DNA from: a virus
Length of the DNA stretch: 64,000 nt
Direction: 5' to 3' (one strand)
Virus record (IMG/VR): IMGVR_UViG_3300045738_001212
Coordinates: 1 to 64,000 of that record
Positions 257 through 60,609 of this stretch are shown one piece after another. Positions within the stretch are counted from its first letter, which is position 1, and each line of letters opens with the position of its first letter. Position numbers and translations under genes: made by a program. The notes under the pieces are model-generated. The model ran no database searches and was not told the DNA's origin. It saw only the letters and a program-made list of their open reading frames with translations.

Positions 257-844
257 ATGAAAAAAATAGCCTTATTCCTGCTTGGTATTACACAAATTTT
301 ACCCGTTTATTCAGCAGAAAATTTCAAATTTCGAGATGGCACATCCGTCGATGGACGCATCTATGTAGAAAAGGGTTTTGAGCCTGATGGATATGGGATC
401 ATCTTGAACATAGAAAACAGTGTTTATGTTCACCATTACCCAGCGACGGACAGGTCTCTCTCTTGTCCCTTATTCTACTACGGCGGACCCAACCCATTTG
501 GCCCAACGCCAGTTTGTACTCCCTCTAGGATTTCGTTTTTTCATTTTGAAACGTTCACCTTAGCTGGAATAAAAGAAAGCGTAACTAGCATGGACATTCC
601 TAAAGAGAAGAAAAAGAAAGCTCTCGCTTCTATCGACAAAGCTCTCTCGGGTGAAATACCGGAAGTTATGACTAACCCGAAGTTGACAACTCGCTCTGCA
701 AATCAAAAATGGGAAATGTGGGTTGACATATCTCTAGGGAAAGAGTTTAAAAAGGGGACAATGATCTGGGGGAAAGACCTACATCTTCTCAAGAAGTATA
801 ACCCTGAGTATCGTAGTCTTTCCTATTCCAAAAAACGAAGATAA
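257..844 (+). CDS. putative secreted protein, 195 aa
   Basis: The N-terminus (MKKIALFLLGITQILPVYSAE) is a classical Sec signal peptide with likely cleavage after YSA around residue 20, so the protein should reach the periplasm. The mature part has three cysteines and a Lys/Arg-rich C-terminus. The ATG at 257 follows a good Shine-Dalgarno (AAAGGAAC) and its own promoter. Its 3' end overlaps the convergent C39-like lipoprotein gene by 66 bases, so the two transcripts are antisense there. No family is recognised. Confidence 0.7.
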   Translation: MKKIALFLLGITQILPVYSAENFKFRDGTSVDGRIYVEKGFEPDGYGIILNIENSVYVHHYPATDRSLSCPLFYYGGPNPFGPTPVCTPSRISFFHFETFTLAGIKESVTSMDIPKEKKKKALASIDKALSGEIPEVMTNPKLTTRSANQKWEMWVDISLGKEFKKGTMIWGKDLHLLKKYNPEYRSLSYSKKRR

Positions 845-1252
845 ATTCGGAGTTACAGGGAAGCAACCCCAATGATAGTTTAACGTCCCCTTGTCGCGAA
901 CCAGAACAATTGCTGTTTTATCAAAGGTTAATTTCTTCAATGATTCTACGGGGAGAATACTTATTTTAATATTTCGTTTGCTTAAGTAGCTTTTTATTTC
1001 TTCAGGGAACGTAATTCCCTTGGCTCGTTTATCGAACATTGACATCACATCTCTAAAAAGAGAGTAGCATTCATGGTTATCTAAAATCTCGCGACTGATG
1101 CTAAACCTCGAAGCGTCGAAATTCATTCTCTCCATCGCGTCATAAAGAGCCTCTGGACCGCAACTGCTATGATGAGGATACGAGCCTTTTTGAAAAACGC
1201 TACACCCCGTACAAAATAAAAAAATTAAAATACAAGTCCATAAGTGCTTCAT
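779..1252 (-). CDS. lipoprotein with a C39-peptidase-like (papain-fold) motif
   Basis: The 157-residue protein starts with a signal peptide ending in a lipobox (FLFCTGC; lipidated Cys about residue 17), which implies outer- or inner-membrane anchoring. After it, SSCGPEALYDAM matches the catalytic-cysteine block of C39/papain-fold peptidases (CGPxxL), and YHWGCFP near residue 128 could supply the histidine. Size and motif order fit a C39-like domain. Peptidase activity is inference, and the acidic triad member was not located. A promoter-like AAGTGTAAT lies just upstream, over the stop codon of the glycosyltransferase gene. The last 66 bases overlap the convergent secreted-protein gene. Confidence 0.65.
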   Translation of the reverse strand: MKHLWTCILIFLFCTGCSVFQKGSYPHHSSCGPEALYDAMERMNFDASRFSISREILDNHECYSLFRDVMSMFDKRAKGITFPEEIKSYLSKRNIKISILPVESLKKLTFDKTAIVLVRDKGTLNYHWGCFPVTPNLSSFFGIGKTTILRVILLEKM

Positions 1253-1263
1253 CCCACAAGGGG

Positions 1264-1272
1264 ATTACACTT
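1264..1272 (-). promoter_or_regulatory. AAGTGTAAT element upstream of the C39-like lipoprotein
   Basis: On the minus strand TTTAAGTGTAATC overlaps the end of the glycosyltransferase gene and lies 11 bases before the ATG at 1252. The same 9-mer occurs upstream of the genes at 19136 (minus), 54054 (plus) and 57004 (plus). No TTGACA-like -35 is evident. Confidence 0.4.
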
Positions 1273-2203
1273 AAATAGATGTTCCGCAATACTCTCGCTC
1301 TGAAATCCCCATGCTTGCAGAGCTTTCATCGTACATGACGGGCTCAGGGCGACGCAAATTTTTTCCTGAAGACGTTAACGCATCTTCGTGTATTACTTTC
1401 AGTTTATCTTCTGAAAGCCACTCTTTGAAGTGTTCGTAAATTGGGCCGGGGTCTGTTCCGAGTTCTACTGCTCCTAAAAAATAATTTCTTATTTTGTTGT
1501 TCAACGTTAGCGGATATTTTACTCCGTCCGGTCTTCCAAACCTATGCACCCATCTTAAGAAAGGGAGACATAAAGTTTTGTGTCCAGCTTTTCTATACTT
1601 CTCATGGATGTATCCTTCTTCTCCTCCAAACCCCCTGAATAAAGGATTGAAACCTAACCAGTTTTCTTTCTTAGCAGAAAAAACCCCTAGTCCCTGCATG
1701 GGAATTTCGAACGGTTCTGCGTCTGGATTTTTTGCTCTATCATCAGTTGCCCAAGTTCCGTACATCTGAGCCCTCCAAACGGGGTCAAAATGAGAAGAGA
1801 TGGTTTTTAAATCATCGTACAAAAGTGGCCCCTGCAATAAGTCTTTTGAGTCTGGATTTTGTTCGTAGTAGTCTATTAGTTTTTTTATGGACCCCGGAAC
1901 AAATAAAATATGGCAATCCATAGAAACAACATATGGAGCAGATGCATGTTCAAAAATTTTATTCCTGACAACTGTGCTTTGGTATTCTGTAAATGGTATG
2001 TATTTTGTCTTAGCCCAGTGCCCCGCAAGATTCTTGGTAATTTTACCATGTGGACCATCAGGGTTATTATCAACAACTAAAATCTCTATATCATCGATAA
2101 CCTCGGGGTGGTACATCCTCAACGCTTGAATAGAAAAGTATACCCCGTGATAATCATCGAAGGTGGCCATACCGATTGTTAGCTTAGGTCTTCTTGGGCT
2201 CAT
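1271..2203 (-). CDS. glycosyltransferase, GT-A fold, polypeptide GalNAc-transferase-like
   Basis: 310 residues. The N-terminus (KLTIGMATFDDYHGVYFSI...EILVVDNN) is the nucleotide-sugar half of a GT-A enzyme. The metal site reads MDCH (Asp96-x-His98), the DxH form typical of polypeptide N-acetylgalactosaminyltransferases rather than the DxD of ordinary GT2. The later PMQGLGVF (168-175), GFGGEEGYIHEKYR (191-204) and VHRF (His220) blocks line up with the PxxAGGLF, WGGENxExSFR and GHVFR blocks of GT27. The two genes upstream in the operon encode a Thr-rich mucin-like protein and a collagen-like fibre, so modification of virion protein Thr/Ser residues is a natural guess. Donor sugar and acceptor are not known. 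Confidence 0.75.
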   Translation of the reverse strand: MSPRRPKLTIGMATFDDYHGVYFSIQALRMYHPEVIDDIEILVVDNNPDGPHGKITKNLAGHWAKTKYIPFTEYQSTVVRNKIFEHASAPYVVSMDCHILFVPGSIKKLIDYYEQNPDSKDLLQGPLLYDDLKTISSHFDPVWRAQMYGTWATDDRAKNPDAEPFEIPMQGLGVFSAKKENWLGFNPLFRGFGGEEGYIHEKYRKAGHKTLCLPFLRWVHRFGRPDGVKYPLTLNNKIRNYFLGAVELGTDPGPIYEHFKEWLSEDKLKVIHEDALTSSGKNLRRPEPVMYDESSASMGISEREYCGTSI

Positions 2204-2258
2204 GCTGTAAAATCCTTATCAATCATAATATGCTTAAATAGTCGAGTTCGTCAACTTA

Positions 2259-2642
2259 TTAAGGCGCAGCGGTAGTCGTTGTCGTGGGTTGAGCAGTCGT
2301 TGTCGTCGTGGGTTGAGCAGTCGTTGTCGTCGTGGGTTGAGCAGTCGTTGTTGTCGTAGGTTGAGCAGTCGTCGTTGTTGTTGGATCGGGGGTCGTTGAC
2401 GTTGTTGTTGACGTTATTGTTGTCGTTGTCGTTGTTGGTGTTGGCGTGGTCGTACACTCGCAACTTTGCATATAATCGTGCCACGTTATCCAAGTGCCGT
2501 TTATGTTTTTATTCGCAAAACATATCTGTTCCCAAGTGCCGTCGGCTTTAGCGTATACGTCGGTTACGCATTCCCATGCGCCATTATCCCTTACAAACAA
2601 ACCGGGGATGCACGGGCCGGATGTGGTGGTTGTGGTTGGCAT
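2259..2642 (-). CDS. threonine-rich mucin-like protein
   Basis: 127 residues. The first 70 form a small Cys/Trp-containing domain (CIPGLFVRDNGAWECVTDVY, then WEQICF and WITWHDYMQSCEC). The rest is almost pure Thr with Pro, Ala and Gln, including four copies of TTTTTAQP from a 24-bp DNA tandem repeat at about 2270-2380. Such tracts are classic O-glycosylation substrates. The gene starts 3 bases after the stop of the 1301-residue collagen-like gene and sits next to a GalNAc-transferase-like gene. It is probably a fibre or tail-associated surface protein. No Shine-Dalgarno is seen, so coupling to the upstream gene is likely. Confidence 0.65.
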   Translation of the reverse strand: MPTTTTTSGPCIPGLFVRDNGAWECVTDVYAKADGTWEQICFANKNINGTWITWHDYMQSCECTTTPTPTTTTTTITSTTTSTTPDPTTTTTAQPTTTTTAQPTTTTTAQPTTTTTAQPTTTTTAAP

Positions 2643-2645
2643 GGT

Positions 2646-6551
<3,906 letters not shown>

Positions 6552-15959: not shown

Positions 15960-19136
<3,177 letters not shown>

Positions 19137-24377: not shown

Positions 24378-25264
24378 GAAGCATCGCCATACAAAGACCG
24401 GGAGCAATCGGAGACGTACTGATGATCATGAATTGTCTTCCCAAATTAAGAGAGCAATTCGATAGTATTGATTTTTTTTGTCACGAGTCGATTGCGGATG
24501 TCTTACATAACTTTTGTACAACTAGTGGATTGGTAGACGGAATGGGATCGATGGGGTGCTTCTTTGGCCGAGAATCGAGTTATGACAAAATTGTCAATTG
24601 TGTAGGATACCCACTTCGCGAAGGCTACCCCAACGTGAAAATGAAAAAACACCTAGTTTCTTATTTCTCTGACGAGCTAGGGGTGAGTGATTCATTTGAT
24701 AGCGTATCGTTACCTCCGTGCGCTGTCCCAGACAAGATAACGAAAACCCCTTACGTAACCATACAAAATAAAACGGGCTGGTCCGCGTATAAAGAATGGT
24801 GGGGGTGGCAACAACTCGTAGACAAACTAAAAAACGAAAGATCGGACGTGGGCATCTATCAAATCGGCGGGCCTAATGATCCGAGTCTAGAGAACATAGA
24901 TGATTCATTTCTTGGAGACTCGTTCGACGATAACCTAGCGGCGCAAGCTTGGGCGAAAACTCATGTCGGTCTCGATTCCGTATTTAATCATACGTCTAAT
25001 TATCAATGGCGGGATTCAGGAAAAAAGAATTGTGTTATCTTATGGGGATCAACTCAATATAATGCGTCAGGATATAGGCATAACACAAATATTTCCTTGA
25101 ATCTACCGTGCCAGCCCTGCTTCAGAGAAGACCCAGACATCTCCAAGATGTCTAGGGGTGTATGCCCGAACCCCCCAAACCAGACATATCAAAACCCAAA
25201 ACATGAATGCATGGCAGGGATAACGGTAGACACAGTTTACGATGCGGTAACTAACTTGCTATGA
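24374..25264 (+). CDS. glycosyltransferase family 9 (heptosyltransferase-like)
   Basis: 296 residues. The N-terminus RPGAIGDVLM is the conserved GT9 start. The middle has PYVTIQNKTGW, and the C-terminal half has IYQIGGPNDP, KTHVGLDSVFNH and the Cys motif CQPCFRE, as in ADP-heptose transferases. GT-B fold, cytoplasmic. The start is GTG overlapping the preceding stop, and the end overlaps the GT2 start (ATGA). Together the pair could modify host LPS or glycosylate virion proteins; the acceptor is unknown. Confidence 0.8.
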   Translation: MRSIAIQRPGAIGDVLMIMNCLPKLREQFDSIDFFCHESIADVLHNFCTTSGLVDGMGSMGCFFGRESSYDKIVNCVGYPLREGYPNVKMKKHLVSYFSDELGVSDSFDSVSLPPCAVPDKITKTPYVTIQNKTGWSAYKEWWGWQQLVDKLKNERSDVGIYQIGGPNDPSLENIDDSFLGDSFDDNLAAQAWAKTHVGLDSVFNHTSNYQWRDSGKKNCVILWGSTQYNASGYRHNTNISLNLPCQPCFREDPDISKMSRGVCPNPPNQTYQNPKHECMAGITVDTVYDAVTNLL

Positions 25265-26406
25265 AGAAGATAACCCTATGCATGATCGTCAAGGATGAGG
25301 CTCACATCATAAAAAGATGTCTTGATAGCGTTAAAGACCTAGTGGACGAGGCCGTGATCATTGACACGGGGAGTTCGGACAACACAATAAAAGTAATAAA
25401 CGATTTCCTGAAAAACGAGAATTTGCCGGGGAAAGTCATCAAGGAGCCGTGGCAAGATTTCGCATACAATAGAACCTTCGCTCTAAAAGAGGCAAAAAAA
25501 ACTAATTGTGATTATTCTCTAATGATTGATGCCGATGAGGTGCTTAACTTTAGTGACGGCTTCTCCCCCCGGAAGTTTAAAGAATCCCTGAAGGAAGATT
25601 GCTACAATGTGCCAACGAAGACATCCAGTTCATTCTATTTCCGCCCGACGCTAACATCCAACAATAAGAAATTCATATACAAGGCACCTGTACATGAGTT
25701 CCTTGAAGCTCCTAATGATTGCTCTCGCGGCGTGGTAGACCATGAAACTGAATTTTTCAATACGCCAATTCAAGACAGCACAAGAAATAAAGACCCCCGC
25801 AAATATGAGAAGGATGTCGAGGTATTAACGAAAGCCTTGAGTGAAGAGACAGATGCCTTTCTTAAGTCGAGATATACGTTCTACCTTGCTCAGAGCCATA
25901 GGGACGCCGACCAACCAGAAAAAGCCCTAGAGCACTATCTGGAGCGCGGTAAAATGGGCTTCTGGGAAGAAGAGTGCTACATGTCCTACTATAAAGCTGG
26001 ACAACTCAGGGAACAACTAGGCCACCCGGAAGACTCCATACTGAACACCCTGCTGAAAGCCCAAGAACATAATGGTGACCGAATGGAAGCTCTTCATTGC
26101 GCTGTAAAATACTGTAGGACACACAACAGAAATCAACTCGGCTATATTTTGGGCAAGGAAGGAGTAAATAAAAAGTTTCAAGATCATTTTTTGTTTGCAG
26201 AATTGTGGATATATGATTATGCCATGCTAGACGAATTCTCCATTGTGGCTTATTGGGCAGGGCAATACAAAGAGGCTTATCGTTATTGCGAAGCACTACT
26301 TAAAAATTCCAAATTCCCGAAGAACCAGTTGCCGCGATTAAATGAAAACCTTAATTTTGCAAAAGAAAAGCTATATTCTGGTTATTCCTCACAAAAAAAA
26401 CTATAA
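25261..26406 (+). CDS. glycosyltransferase family 2 with C-terminal TPR-like helices
   Basis: 381 residues. LCMIVKDEAHIIKRCLDSV, VIIDTGSSDNT and MIDADEVL (the metal-binding DxD) define a GT-A family 2 enzyme of the subgroup that carries TPR-like repeats. The C-terminal half is helical (FYLAQSHRDADQPEKALEHY, YKAGQLREQLGHPE), consistent with TPRs that bind a protein acceptor. It is coupled to the GT9 gene by a 4-base overlap. Confidence 0.85.
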   Translation: MKKITLCMIVKDEAHIIKRCLDSVKDLVDEAVIIDTGSSDNTIKVINDFLKNENLPGKVIKEPWQDFAYNRTFALKEAKKTNCDYSLMIDADEVLNFSDGFSPRKFKESLKEDCYNVPTKTSSSFYFRPTLTSNNKKFIYKAPVHEFLEAPNDCSRGVVDHETEFFNTPIQDSTRNKDPRKYEKDVEVLTKALSEETDAFLKSRYTFYLAQSHRDADQPEKALEHYLERGKMGFWEEECYMSYYKAGQLREQLGHPEDSILNTLLKAQEHNGDRMEALHCAVKYCRTHNRNQLGYILGKEGVNKKFQDHFLFAELWIYDYAMLDEFSIVAYWAGQYKEAYRYCEALLKNSKFPKNQLPRLNENLNFAKEKLYSGYSSQKKL

Positions 26407-50308: not shown

Positions 50309-51085
50309 TCAGAACCCCAAGACGCTGAAGAACCCCTCACAATATGGATTTCTCTTCTTCTCTTCTTCCACGTACAACTTGGACAGATCATTGACAGAAA
50401 CCGAACTCTCTCCCCCGCATTGGAAAAGTGTTAGATTTTTATATCGCCGCATAAAATCTAAGATTCTTTCAAAGCCCCCTCTCTTTTGAGAAAGCCAAGG
50501 CGTATGAATCTCTACGTAGATTGGAACCTGCAAGTCTCCAGCGTTCTCGATGATGACATCCTCCATGCCTTCCACGTCAATTTTTAAAAAATTTAAATCG
50601 TTAATTCTTTCGCTCTCGATAAGGGAAGGTAAGGAAATTGATTCGGCCTCGAAAGAGTTTGCTTCGTCAGCGAAAAAAGCAGCAGTCCTACTTGAACCCA
50701 AGGCTGGACAAGTGTTCGGGCAACCTAGTTTAATGCTCTCAGAATCGCCTCCTAGAGCCTTTGGTAGCAGCTTGACATTTGATATGCCATTTATGTGGAT
50801 GTTCTTGCCTGTGATCCTCAGAGCTTCTGAATCCGGCTCAACTGCGTAAACTGTCTTCGCAAGTTCCGCTCCGTACAAAACAGTCTGCCCCAAGTGGACA
50901 CCCGCATCTATGTAAGAGTGATCCTTATCCAGAAAAGACTCTAACACTTTATAAGTATGGCTCTCCCAATCATCCCAAGCCCAGAAGTTTGGGATAGATG
51001 GAGTCTCGTTCTCGTAAACAAAAAAACGAACGCCCCTGCGTTTTACTTCTGTCAGGGAGTTCGTTCTGTATGGGTCTTCACTCAC
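50309..51085 (-). CDS. FkbM-family methyltransferase
   Basis: 258 residues from a GTG start at 51085 that overlaps the upstream stop. SAM-binding motif SYIDAGVHLGQTVLYGAE, then VYAVEPDSEALRITGKNI, FLKIDVEGMEDVIIENAG and IYVEIHTPWL are the FkbM blocks. Such enzymes often methylate sugars; with four glycosyltransferase-type genes in the window a glycan target is plausible. Confidence 0.8.
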   Translation of the reverse strand: MSEDPYRTNSLTEVKRRGVRFFVYENETPSIPNFWAWDDWESHTYKVLESFLDKDHSYIDAGVHLGQTVLYGAELAKTVYAVEPDSEALRITGKNIHINGISNVKLLPKALGGDSESIKLGCPNTCPALGSSRTAAFFADEANSFEAESISLPSLIESERINDLNFLKIDVEGMEDVIIENAGDLQVPIYVEIHTPWLSQKRGGFERILDFMRRYKNLTLFQCGGESSVSVNDLSKLYVEEEKKRNPYCEGFFSVLGF

Positions 51086-51321
51086 TTTTTCTTTTTGGTT
51101 TTCTTCGCCTCCTTGGCGGCTGTTTCGTACTTTATATTCTCTCGCAGTTCTGACTTGGGGCAGTATGCCCAACCATCGCTAAGTAAATTTCTTAATTGCT
51201 TAAATGATTCTTGGTACTTGCCTTCTGAGTCTGCCTCTTTGGCGATTTCTCTCATGGTGAACCATTGGTTTGGCAGCGGTGATATTTTGGTATACTTTTT
51301 TCCTTTTTTTAGTGTTTTCAT
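51082..51321 (-). CDS. hypothetical basic protein, 79 aa
   Basis: MKTLKKGKKYTKISPLPNQWFTMREIAKEADSEGKYQESFKQLRNLLSDGWAYCPKSELRE...: a winged-helix-like layout with Lys-rich tail (AAKEAKKTKKKK), suggesting DNA binding. Coupled on both sides by 4-base overlaps. Confidence 0.55.
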   Translation of the reverse strand: MKTLKKGKKYTKISPLPNQWFTMREIAKEADSEGKYQESFKQLRNLLSDGWAYCPKSELRENIKYETAAKEAKKTKKKK

Positions 51322-58810: not shown

Positions 58811-59485
58811 TCACGGGCGATAACTGTTTTTATTACAGTGAGGAAACTTTGACGAAGGGGAAGGTACATTTAAGAACGGGCATAGCTTTTCGTATCCATC
58901 ACCCTTGGTGATGTCCATTTCAAGAATATTTTCAAGTGGATTATCAAACTTATAGTTTTCGACTCTCTCGTAAAAATTTAAATAAATTTTTATAAAAGCC
59001 TCTCTCTCAAAAAAAAGTCGCCCGAATCTATATTTTCTATTCACAACCATTCGGTCCGATAAATTTCTTCTTCCACCTTTCGGGCCAAACTCTCCGAACT
59101 GTCTCGCGCATGACATTAGCCACGGCTCTAAGTCTCTTTTAGTCCAGACCAGCCTAGCGTTAGGATACTGTTCTTTTATTTTTTCAAAATCAATCAACCC
59201 ATAAATCTCGGCAATGGAATCCTTTCTTTCCAGAACCTTGTACCAATAGTCTTCATCAAACCAGTCGCAAGGGAAGCTGAAAGTGGAGGCACCTTCTCGG
59301 CATTGCCGGACGAGCAGTTCCCGAAATAATTCGTCTTTCTTTCTAGAGCTTGCCAGTAGTCTCCGATGACGTTGCTCTTTGACCACTAAAGAGTGGCGAG
59401 CAGAGAAACCTAATTTTCTAAGAGCTTTGCAAAAGCTTACCGTACCAGTTTTTGGTAAACCTATGCATATGATCTTTTGTTTCAC
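58811..59485 (-). CDS. sulfotransferase-like protein
   Basis: 224 residues. KIICIGLPKTGTVSFCKALRKLGF is the 5'-PSB (PAPS-binding) loop of sulfotransferases, and RLVWTKRDLEPWLMSC supplies the 3'-phosphate-binding-type segment; ends LCPFLNVPSPSSKFPHCNK. Likely transfers sulfate from PAPS to a sugar or small molecule. Start overlaps the stop of the saccharopine-dehydrogenase-like gene. Confidence 0.75.
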   Translation of the reverse strand: MKQKIICIGLPKTGTVSFCKALRKLGFSARHSLVVKEQRHRRLLASSRKKDELFRELLVRQCREGASTFSFPCDWFDEDYWYKVLERKDSIAEIYGLIDFEKIKEQYPNARLVWTKRDLEPWLMSCARQFGEFGPKGGRRNLSDRMVVNRKYRFGRLFFEREAFIKIYLNFYERVENYKFDNPLENILEMDITKGDGYEKLCPFLNVPSPSSKFPHCNKNSYRP

Positions 59486-60609
59486 TAAGCCTCGATCCCA
59501 AGCCGACTCAATCTCTTACCGAACTTGCCGTAAGGGACATGATTGTAAGACAAGTTTCTAGGGAAAGGCTCCCAATAGCCTCTGCGCTGCGCCATGTCCT
59601 TGTCAAAAAACCCTTCCGCCATCAAACTCGCCACACTTGCGGCGGGAAACGCGGTAGCTTTTTGCATTGCTGAAAACTCACTTAAGCCGCCAAAGACTGC
59701 CAATTCCTTTTTCCATTCAACGTCACCTCCATCCACAAATACCTTCATCAAGACGACATCTCCTACTCCCCCCTCGTCCCTGCACCCCCTCTCAAAAGCT
59801 TCTCTCACGCAATCTTCACTCTGATATTCCATTAAGAAGCGAACTACGTCTCGGTGTCCTTTATATCTAAGAGTTTTATAAACGCAGTTTTTAACGCCTT
59901 TTTCTTTCATAGAATGCACCGTATGAGACGCTCCCCCGCTTGTATAAAACGCCTCTAGGTTGCCTAATATCCCACAATCTACGCTCTCCAAACCGTCCAT
60001 CCCCTTCACTAACTTTATTTTGCCATCTTGCAGTATTTCGCAATTATCTTTATACTCGTTTATAAGCCCATCTATAGACCACGTAACGATATAATCTAGG
60101 GGGTGATTTACTTTTACTGTCGGTAAACCACCAACCAGCATCTTAACGGAGTCCACCTGCGTATGAATTTGTTTACACCCATGCTCCGCTAGAATATTCA
60201 CCCATCCCGGAGCTAAACCAAGGTCAGTAAACACTGGCTTGGACGCTTTCTCTTTGGCGTATTCATTAATCCTATGTGATACATCAATTCTGCCCCCCAA
60301 ATCACAGTAACGAAATCCTTTATCAATACACCACGACGCAAGCTTTTCGGTTTGGTGATACGGCAAACTGCTGATTACAACATCAGGTTTTTCAAAAGAC
60401 AGAGCCCTGTCCCAACCTTTCTTTTCATCCGTAAGGTAAAACACCCCGCCAATTCCATCTACGTATTTCCTAAAAGGCTCTACCGCGTCCTTGTTGGAGT
60501 CTACACCAATCACATAGAAACCAAGCTTATTCATGGCGTAACATATTGCTTGGCCCATTCTTCCTACGCCAAGAACTGCTGCTTTTTTACCATCAATGAG
60601 GGCTTTCAT
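59485..60609 (-). CDS. saccharopine-dehydrogenase-like oxidoreductase
   Basis: 374 residues. The N-terminal Rossmann motif KAAVLGVGRMGQAICYAMNKLGFYVIGVD binds NAD(P). VVISSLPYHQTEKLASWCIDKGFRYCDLGG and TDLGLAPGWVNILAEHG match the saccharopine/lysine-6-/carboxynorspermidine-dehydrogenase group. It sits between SpeD and a sulfotransferase, which hints at polyamine or lysine-derived chemistry. True substrate unknown. Confidence 0.75.
   Translation of the reverse strand: MKALIDGKKAAVLGVGRMGQAICYAMNKLGFYVIGVDSNKDAVEPFRKYVDGIGGVFYLTDEKKGWDRALSFEKPDVVISSLPYHQTEKLASWCIDKGFRYCDLGGRIDVSHRINEYAKEKASKPVFTDLGLAPGWVNILAEHGCKQIHTQVDSVKMLVGGLPTVKVNHPLDYIVTWSIDGLINEYKDNCEILQDGKIKLVKGMDGLESVDCGILGNLEAFYTSGGASHTVHSMKEKGVKNCVYKTLRYKGHRDVVRFLMEYQSEDCVREAFERGCRDEGGVGDVVLMKVFVDGGDVEWKKELAVFGGLSEFSAMQKATAFPAASVASLMAEGFFDKDMAQRRGYWEPFPRNLSYNHVPYGKFGKRLSRLGIEA

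What the first reader, a model, noticed from the sequence alone, without database searches (positions are those of the whole stretch)
1271..2642. GalNAc-transferase-like enzyme next to a mucin-like phage protein
Seen: a Thr-rich protein with four TTTTTAQP repeats, immediately followed in the operon by a GT-A enzyme with MDCH (DxH), PMQGLGVF, GFGGEEGYIHEKYR and VHRF. Known: polypeptide GalNAc-transferases (GT27) use DxH, WGGEN-type and GH blocks and modify Thr/Ser next to Pro. Inference: a phage-encoded mucin-type O-glycosylation module for a virion surface protein.
Basis: partly seen in the sequence, partly recalled or inferred. Interest (0 to 1): 0.75.

Follow-up and report, generated by a model that had tools for sequence, protein, structure and literature searches.

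The report
Phage enzyme that sugar-coats threonine tracts
This phage carries a small enzyme whose predicted fold and active-site motifs match the animal enzymes that start mucin sugar-coating, and its gene sits directly behind a gene for a threonine-tract protein; many other phages and bacteria repeat the pair, so prokaryotes probably have their own mucin-like protein glycosylation.

Summary
The ORF at 1271-2203 (-) encodes a 310-aa GT-A enzyme. Its AlphaFold model matches polypeptide GalNAc-transferases (CAZy GT27) above all other solved structures: the 29 best aligned entries are GT27 (Z 20.4-24.7), the next is chondroitin polymerase (18.9). A family profile also finds GT27 across the catalytic region, with DxH, a GGEE block and a His 28 residues later. 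Relatives are common in metagenomic phages and in bacteria; none was found in the cultured-phage collection. Thr-tract proteins lie directly beside the enzyme far more often than elsewhere (phages 12/90 neighbours vs 3/677 distant ORFs; bacteria 9/70 vs 4/694). With Thr tracts masked, 38 partner proteins fall into 30 unrelated families: only the tract is shared. Among 45 random viral records, the two with the enzyme were the two with long Thr arrays. A second, GT8-like family (phrog_4417) sits behind poly-Thr genes in other phages, including cultured Lactobacillus and Staphylococcus phages. Best reading: phage-encoded O-glycosylation of a Thr-tract protein. Sugar, activity and virion location are untested. 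The lectin domain is absent and WGGEN is FGGEE, so it is GT27-like, not a proven GT27 member.

The parts
1271..2203 (-). GT27-like glycosyltransferase, 310 aa, single GT-A domain; D96-x-H98, EPFEIPMQG, F192-G-G-E-E196, H220
2259..2642 (-). Thr-tract protein, 127 aa: short Trp-containing segment (about residues 15-65), then Thr runs and 4 x TTTTTAQP + TTTTTAAP; proposed acceptor
2646..6551 (-). collagen-like (Gly-X-Thr/Pro) tail-fibre protein, 1301 aa, directly upstream in the same direction; places the module in a tail-fibre gene block and is a possible second acceptor

Best explanation
The gene pair 1271-2642 is a phage-encoded protein O-glycosylation module. The enzyme is a stand-alone GT-A glycosyltransferase built like the catalytic domain of GT27 polypeptide GalNAc-transferases. 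It most likely binds a UDP-sugar and a metal through D96-x-H98 and H220. It then transfers one sugar to Thr residues of the TTTTT-A-x-P tracts of the protein encoded just upstream, giving a densely O-glycosylated, mucin-like stalk on a tail-fibre-associated virion protein. Shown here: predicted fold, motif conservation and the recurrent genomic pairing with Thr tracts whatever protein carries them. Inferred: catalysis, Thr as acceptor, virion location. Unknown: the sugar (a UDP-HexNAc or UDP-hexose; GalNAc is possible but unproven).
For: (1) AlphaFold model (pLDDT 88) has polypeptide GalNAc-transferases as all 50 top Foldseek PDB hits (best E 3e-15) and the first 29 VIA-align entries (Z 20.4-24.7, 248-269 residues), then a drop to K4 chondroitin polymerase, 18.9. 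(2) Family profile vs PDB: GalNAc-T10 (1.5e-4), PGANT9 (0.003) and GalNAc-T4 (0.008) align from the nucleotide-binding half through GGEx to the His; most plain GT2s match only in the N-terminal half. (3) D-x-H and H220 are invariant in the 18-sequence alignment; FGxEE to HxF spacing is 28 in 176 of 185 domains. (4) Poly-Thr ORFs adjoin the enzyme in 12 of 49 enzyme-selected phage loci, always immediately upstream on the same strand: 12/90 neighbours vs 3/677 distant ORFs, p 1e-9; bacteria 9/70 vs 4/694, p 1.5e-7. (5) 38 partner proteins form 30 unrelated families after masking Thr; the shared part is Thr runs with spacers such as AQP, VAP, AAP, PAP, PEP. (6) Random viral DNA: 0 such ORFs in 951 kb; of 45 random records the 2 with the enzyme are the 2 with long mixed-codon Thr arrays, p 0.001. 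(7) An unrelated GT8-like family occupies the same position behind poly-Thr genes in other phages. (8) Bacterial homologues sit beside Thr-rich proteins, several with RR-type export-signal-like N-termini and some with PqqD peptide-binding domains.
Against: No biochemical or proteomic evidence exists. Most phage representatives (37 of 49) have no strict poly-Thr ORF adjoining; in one large clade (example L015) the enzyme lies beside a nuclease, with Thr arrays elsewhere in most but not all of the records tested. Of 40 records picked for poly-Thr, only 2 carry this enzyme, so poly-Thr does not require it. FGGEE replaces WGGEN and the GT27 lectin domain is missing. Model-to-PDB sequence identity is only 13-19% for the GT27 rows.
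Confidence: 0.78

Rival explanations
1. The enzyme glycosylates a different acceptor in the same gene block, mainly the Gly-X-Thr collagen-like fibre (2646-6551); the Thr-tract protein is an unmodified linker.
For: The collagen-like fibre gene is next in line and rich in GXT triplets. Other bacterial collagen-like proteins carry sugars on Thr (own knowledge).
Against: Across the family the recurring neighbour is the Thr tract; most partners share no other sequence. The partners read in full are mostly not collagen-like.
Confidence: 0.1
2. The enzyme is an ordinary GT2 acting on glycans, for example host O-antigen or capsule modification, as many phage glycosyltransferases do; adjacency to Thr tracts is incidental.
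For: Pfam and NCBIfam call only a generic GT2 N-terminal half; one member weakly matches a GtrB-like PHROG.
Against: GT27-first fold and GT27 alignment through the C-terminal half; strong enrichment of Thr-tract neighbours in two independent collections. The predicted enzyme is a single GT-A domain of about 280 ordered residues.
Confidence: 0.07
3. The enzyme glycosylates a hypermodified DNA base.
For: Phage glycosyltransferases that modify DNA are known (Pyle et al. 2024, cited in PMC12619734).
Against: No thymidylate-synthase-family match in this record or 11 others with the enzyme (incomplete records); the gene sits among tail-fibre genes; DNA glycosylation does not explain Thr tracts.
Confidence: 0.03
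4. The Thr tract is a neutral low-complexity repeat and its adjacency reflects hitchhiking in hypervariable gene regions.
For: The TTTTTAQP units are near-identical at DNA level, so the array expanded recently.
Against: Mixed synonymous codons (median entropy 1.63 of 2 bits; adjacent codons identical 0.34 vs 0.37 expected) point to selection on the amino acid; the tract gene is always upstream on the same strand in the 12 strict cases.
Confidence: 0.02

Closest known systems
GT27 polypeptide N-acetylgalactosaminyltransferases (GalNAc-T1, T2, T10, Toxoplasma GalNAc-T3)
   Same: GT-A catalytic fold, DxH, GGEx block, metal His 28 residues after the aromatic residue, Thr/Pro-rich candidate acceptor
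   Different: Prokaryotic/viral, about 280 ordered residues, no ricin-type lectin domain or membrane stem, FGGEE instead of WGGEN, sequence identity 13-19%, sugar unknown
Virion glycosylation of mycobacteriophages (Freeman et al. 2023, as described in PMC12619734)
   Same: Glycosylation of virion proteins of a phage
   Different: There the glycans are on the C-termini of capsid and tail-tube proteins; the paper itself is not held, so its enzymes were not compared
K4 chondroitin polymerase and other GT2 enzymes
   Same: GT-A fold, next best structural matches (Z 18.9 and below)
   Different: Sequence match mostly limited to the N-terminal nucleotide-binding half; glycan acceptors
phrog_4417 (function unknown; GT8/glycogenin-like fold)
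   Same: Lies directly behind poly-Thr genes in phages
   Different: Different GT-A family (DxD, best fold matches glycogenin/LgtC, Z about 15); known from cultured phages

Membership tests
CAZy GT27 (polypeptide GalNAc-transferases) | Catalytic-domain fold closest to GT27 structures | tested here: met
   29 GT27 entries first, Z 20.4-24.7, next non-GT27 18.9
CAZy GT27 (polypeptide GalNAc-transferases) | Sequence similarity across the whole catalytic domain | tested here: met
   profile E 1.5e-4 to GalNAc-T10 over positions 36-222; remote only, a single-sequence search gives nothing
CAZy GT27 (polypeptide GalNAc-transferases) | DxH metal motif plus distal metal-binding His | tested here: met
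   D96-x-H98 and H220 invariant in A1; spacing 28 from the FG block in 176/185 domains
CAZy GT27 (polypeptide GalNAc-transferases) | WGGEN block | tested here: not met
   The position is FGGEE or FGAEE in nearly all members; GG and the first E agree, W and N do not
CAZy GT27 (polypeptide GalNAc-transferases) | C-terminal ricin-type lectin domain (typical, not universal) | tested here: not met
   Pfam finds only Glycos_transf_2; the ordered part ends after the catalytic domain
CAZy GT27 (polypeptide GalNAc-transferases) | Retaining transfer of GalNAc from UDP-GalNAc to Ser/Thr of proteins | not testable with these tools
   Needs an enzyme assay
Pfam PF00535 Glycos_transf_2 | Match above gathering score | tested here: met
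   35.8 bits vs 23.3, N-terminal half only

The most novel reading that the evidence does not exclude
Prokaryotes and their phages have a widespread, previously undescribed mucin-like O-glycosylation system: GT27-like enzymes (in bacteria often fused to HprK-like, PqqD-like or GT25 domains) and, in other phages, GT8-like phrog_4417 enzymes, each dedicated to poly-Thr tracts on exported or virion proteins. It would be a prokaryotic counterpart, possibly a relative of the source, of animal mucin-type O-glycosylation.
Probability: 0.5. Interest if true: 0.9.

Novelty: new variant of a known kind. Interest (0 to 1): 0.8.

Why it matters
If true, phages encode their own mucin-like coat: enzyme and substrate as a portable two-gene module that attaches to unrelated fibre and tail proteins. 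It would give a function to the poly-Thr proteins seen in phages, offer small single-domain O-glycosyltransferases for making mucin-like proteins in bacteria, and make the prokaryotic roots of the GT27 fold directly testable.

Tried and rejected
Single-sequence PDB search: nothing. INPHARED cultured phages by tblastn with three family queries, up to E 1: no match, while a positive control worked. A classical GT2 control from L014 and the window's other GT gave only 3 loci each, too few for a matched control; random viral stretches were used instead. Literature searches for poly-Thr phage proteins, phage GT27 and Thr-tract glycosylation found no description; the library lacks most subscription journals. 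The ACN hits at 93794 of the record did not give a Thr ORF in the non-overlapping ORF list. Thr-tract thresholds were set after seeing the first loci, and neighbouring loci share ancestry, so p-values are indicative.

Full report
OBSERVATION. The two ORFs exist as described, on the minus strand: a 127-aa Thr-rich protein (2259-2642; 50 Thr, four TTTTTAQP and one TTTTTAAP) and a 310-aa glycosyltransferase (1271-2203) with MDCH, EPFEIPMQG, GFGGEEGYIHEKYR and VHRF. The Thr ORF starts 4 bp after a 1,301-aa collagen-like tail-fibre ORF ends, and the GT ORF has an AAGGA-type ribosome site. The record is a 158-kb viral contig; the window holds a terminase gene and two large collagen-like fibre genes, so it is a tailed phage.

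WHAT THE ENZYME IS. Pfam sees only a generic GT2 N-terminal half, which I do not take to separate GT2 from GT27. A profile of 18 sequences, the window protein and 17 viral relatives, finds GalNAc-T10, PGANT9, GalNAc-T4, T12 and T7 in the PDB; the alignments shown for T10 and PGANT9 run through DxH, the GGEx block and the distal His, while most plain GT2 hits cover only the N-terminal half. The AlphaFold2 model (pLDDT 88.3, pTM 0.84) gives GT27 structures as the 50 best Foldseek hits and the 29 best VIA-align entries, Z 20.4-24.7, followed by chondroitin polymerase at 18.9. The FGxEE-to-HxF spacing is 28 residues in 176 of 185 family domains; W331-H359 in GalNAc-T2 has the same spacing (own knowledge of numbering). 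Asp209, His211 and His344 are the key residues of GALNT1 (PMC4202792).

DISTRIBUTION. A scan of IMG/VR found 349 relatives, and one of GTDB genomes 86. None is found in 50,697 cultured-phage records. A tree of 121 domains separates most phage from most bacterial sequences, with Thr-paired members in several separate clades of both. The bacterial forms are mostly larger: among those scanned are HprK-related, PqqD-like, TPR, methyltransferase or GT25 domains in the same protein.

THE PAIRING. Phage loci fetched by the enzyme alone: 49 representatives (clustered at 80% identity); 12 have a strict poly-Thr ORF within 300 bp, all immediately upstream on the same strand. This is 12/90 neighbouring ORFs vs 3/677 ORFs over 2 kb away (p 1e-9); in bacteria 9/70 vs 4/694 (p 1.5e-7). 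With a relaxed Thr/Ser/Pro/Ala criterion: 22/97 vs 14/696 and 17/70 vs 7/694 (the phage set there includes three loci picked for poly-Thr and two from the random set). After masking Thr tracts, 38 partners form 30 unrelated families. By my own reading, partners range from Calx-beta-like and tail-like phage proteins to bacterial proteins with RR-type export-signal-like N-termini. Thr codons are mixed.

UNBIASED CONTROLS. 113 random viral stretches, 951 kb: no poly-Thr ORF. 45 random viral records of 30 kb or more: two have long mixed-codon ACN arrays, G030 and G050, and exactly these two carry the enzyme, next to the arrays; Fisher p 0.001. Of 25 records carrying the enzyme, 23 have at least one ACN6 match, some only a few. 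In the reverse direction only 2 of 40 poly-Thr records carry the enzyme.

A SECOND ENZYME BESIDE POLY-THR. Among 66 poly-Thr loci, 8 have a different enzyme directly downstream (gap from -6 to 44 bp) on the same strand, not seen in the random stretches or the GT27-like loci. It is phrog_4417, function unknown, and its model is GT8/glycogenin-like. In cultured phages it lies just behind genes for Thr-tract proteins in Lactobacillus phages Semele and iLp84, Staphylococcus phage SA2 and Chryseobacterium phage MA9V-3; in Enterococcus phage 9183 no such gene was seen. Two unrelated sugar transferases in the same position argue that the tract is the acceptor.

MECHANISM. Most likely: UDP-sugar + Thr tract gives dense O-linked sugars, stiffening and shielding a fibre-associated protein. 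Shown: predicted fold, motifs, pairing. Inferred: activity, acceptor, virion location. Unknown: sugar, host, any extension of the glycan.

LIMITS. Thresholds were chosen during the work; loci are not independent; records are incomplete; no experiment. The clade whose member L015 lies beside a nuclease and near DnaB, and L058 and L069, with no ACN6 array in their records, are not explained (L058 does have a relaxed Thr/Pro-rich neighbour). The family meets the fold and most motif features of GT27 but not the exact WGGEN block or the lectin domain, so I call it GT27-like and do not file it as a GT27 member.

Noticed in passing
L105, L127, L134, L143, L151, L156, L167, L182; cultured-phage loci L463-L465, L467: phrog_4417 (function unknown in PHROGs) is a GT8/glycogenin-like enzyme found immediately downstream of poly-Thr genes; in Lactobacillus phages iLp84 and Semele the adjoining annotated 'major tail protein' consists largely of TTTTT-VKP-type repeats.
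   Followed up: partly
L225, L236, L242, L252, L266, L270, L274, L301: Bacterial homologues are mostly larger proteins, several with HprK-like, PqqD-like or GT25 domains, and sit beside Thr-rich proteins, several with RR-type export-signal-like N-termini; in L236 and L266 a PqqD-type domain is on the Thr-rich protein itself.
   Followed up: partly
window 25261-26406 (+): A second glycosyltransferase (phrog_13126, beta-1,4-glycosyltransferase, GT2 type), with relatives in very large uncultured phages and Tunturiibacter phage Tunturi_5.
   Followed up: no
window 779-1252 (-): Small lipoprotein-like ORF (N-terminus MKHLWTCILIFLFCTGCS) directly downstream of the glycosyltransferase, overlapping the opposite-strand ORF 257-844.
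   Followed up: no
window 59485-60609 (-): Saccharopine-dehydrogenase-like protein (Sacchrp_dh_C 1.4e-25), an unusual metabolic gene in a phage.
   Followed up: no
window 50309-51172 (-) and 40404-41372 (-): FkbM-type methyltransferase, and an AAA/RuvB-like ATPase with a RuvB C-terminal domain.
   Followed up: no
window 15960-19136 (-): A second large collagen-like tail-fibre protein (1058 aa), besides 2646-6551.
   Followed up: no
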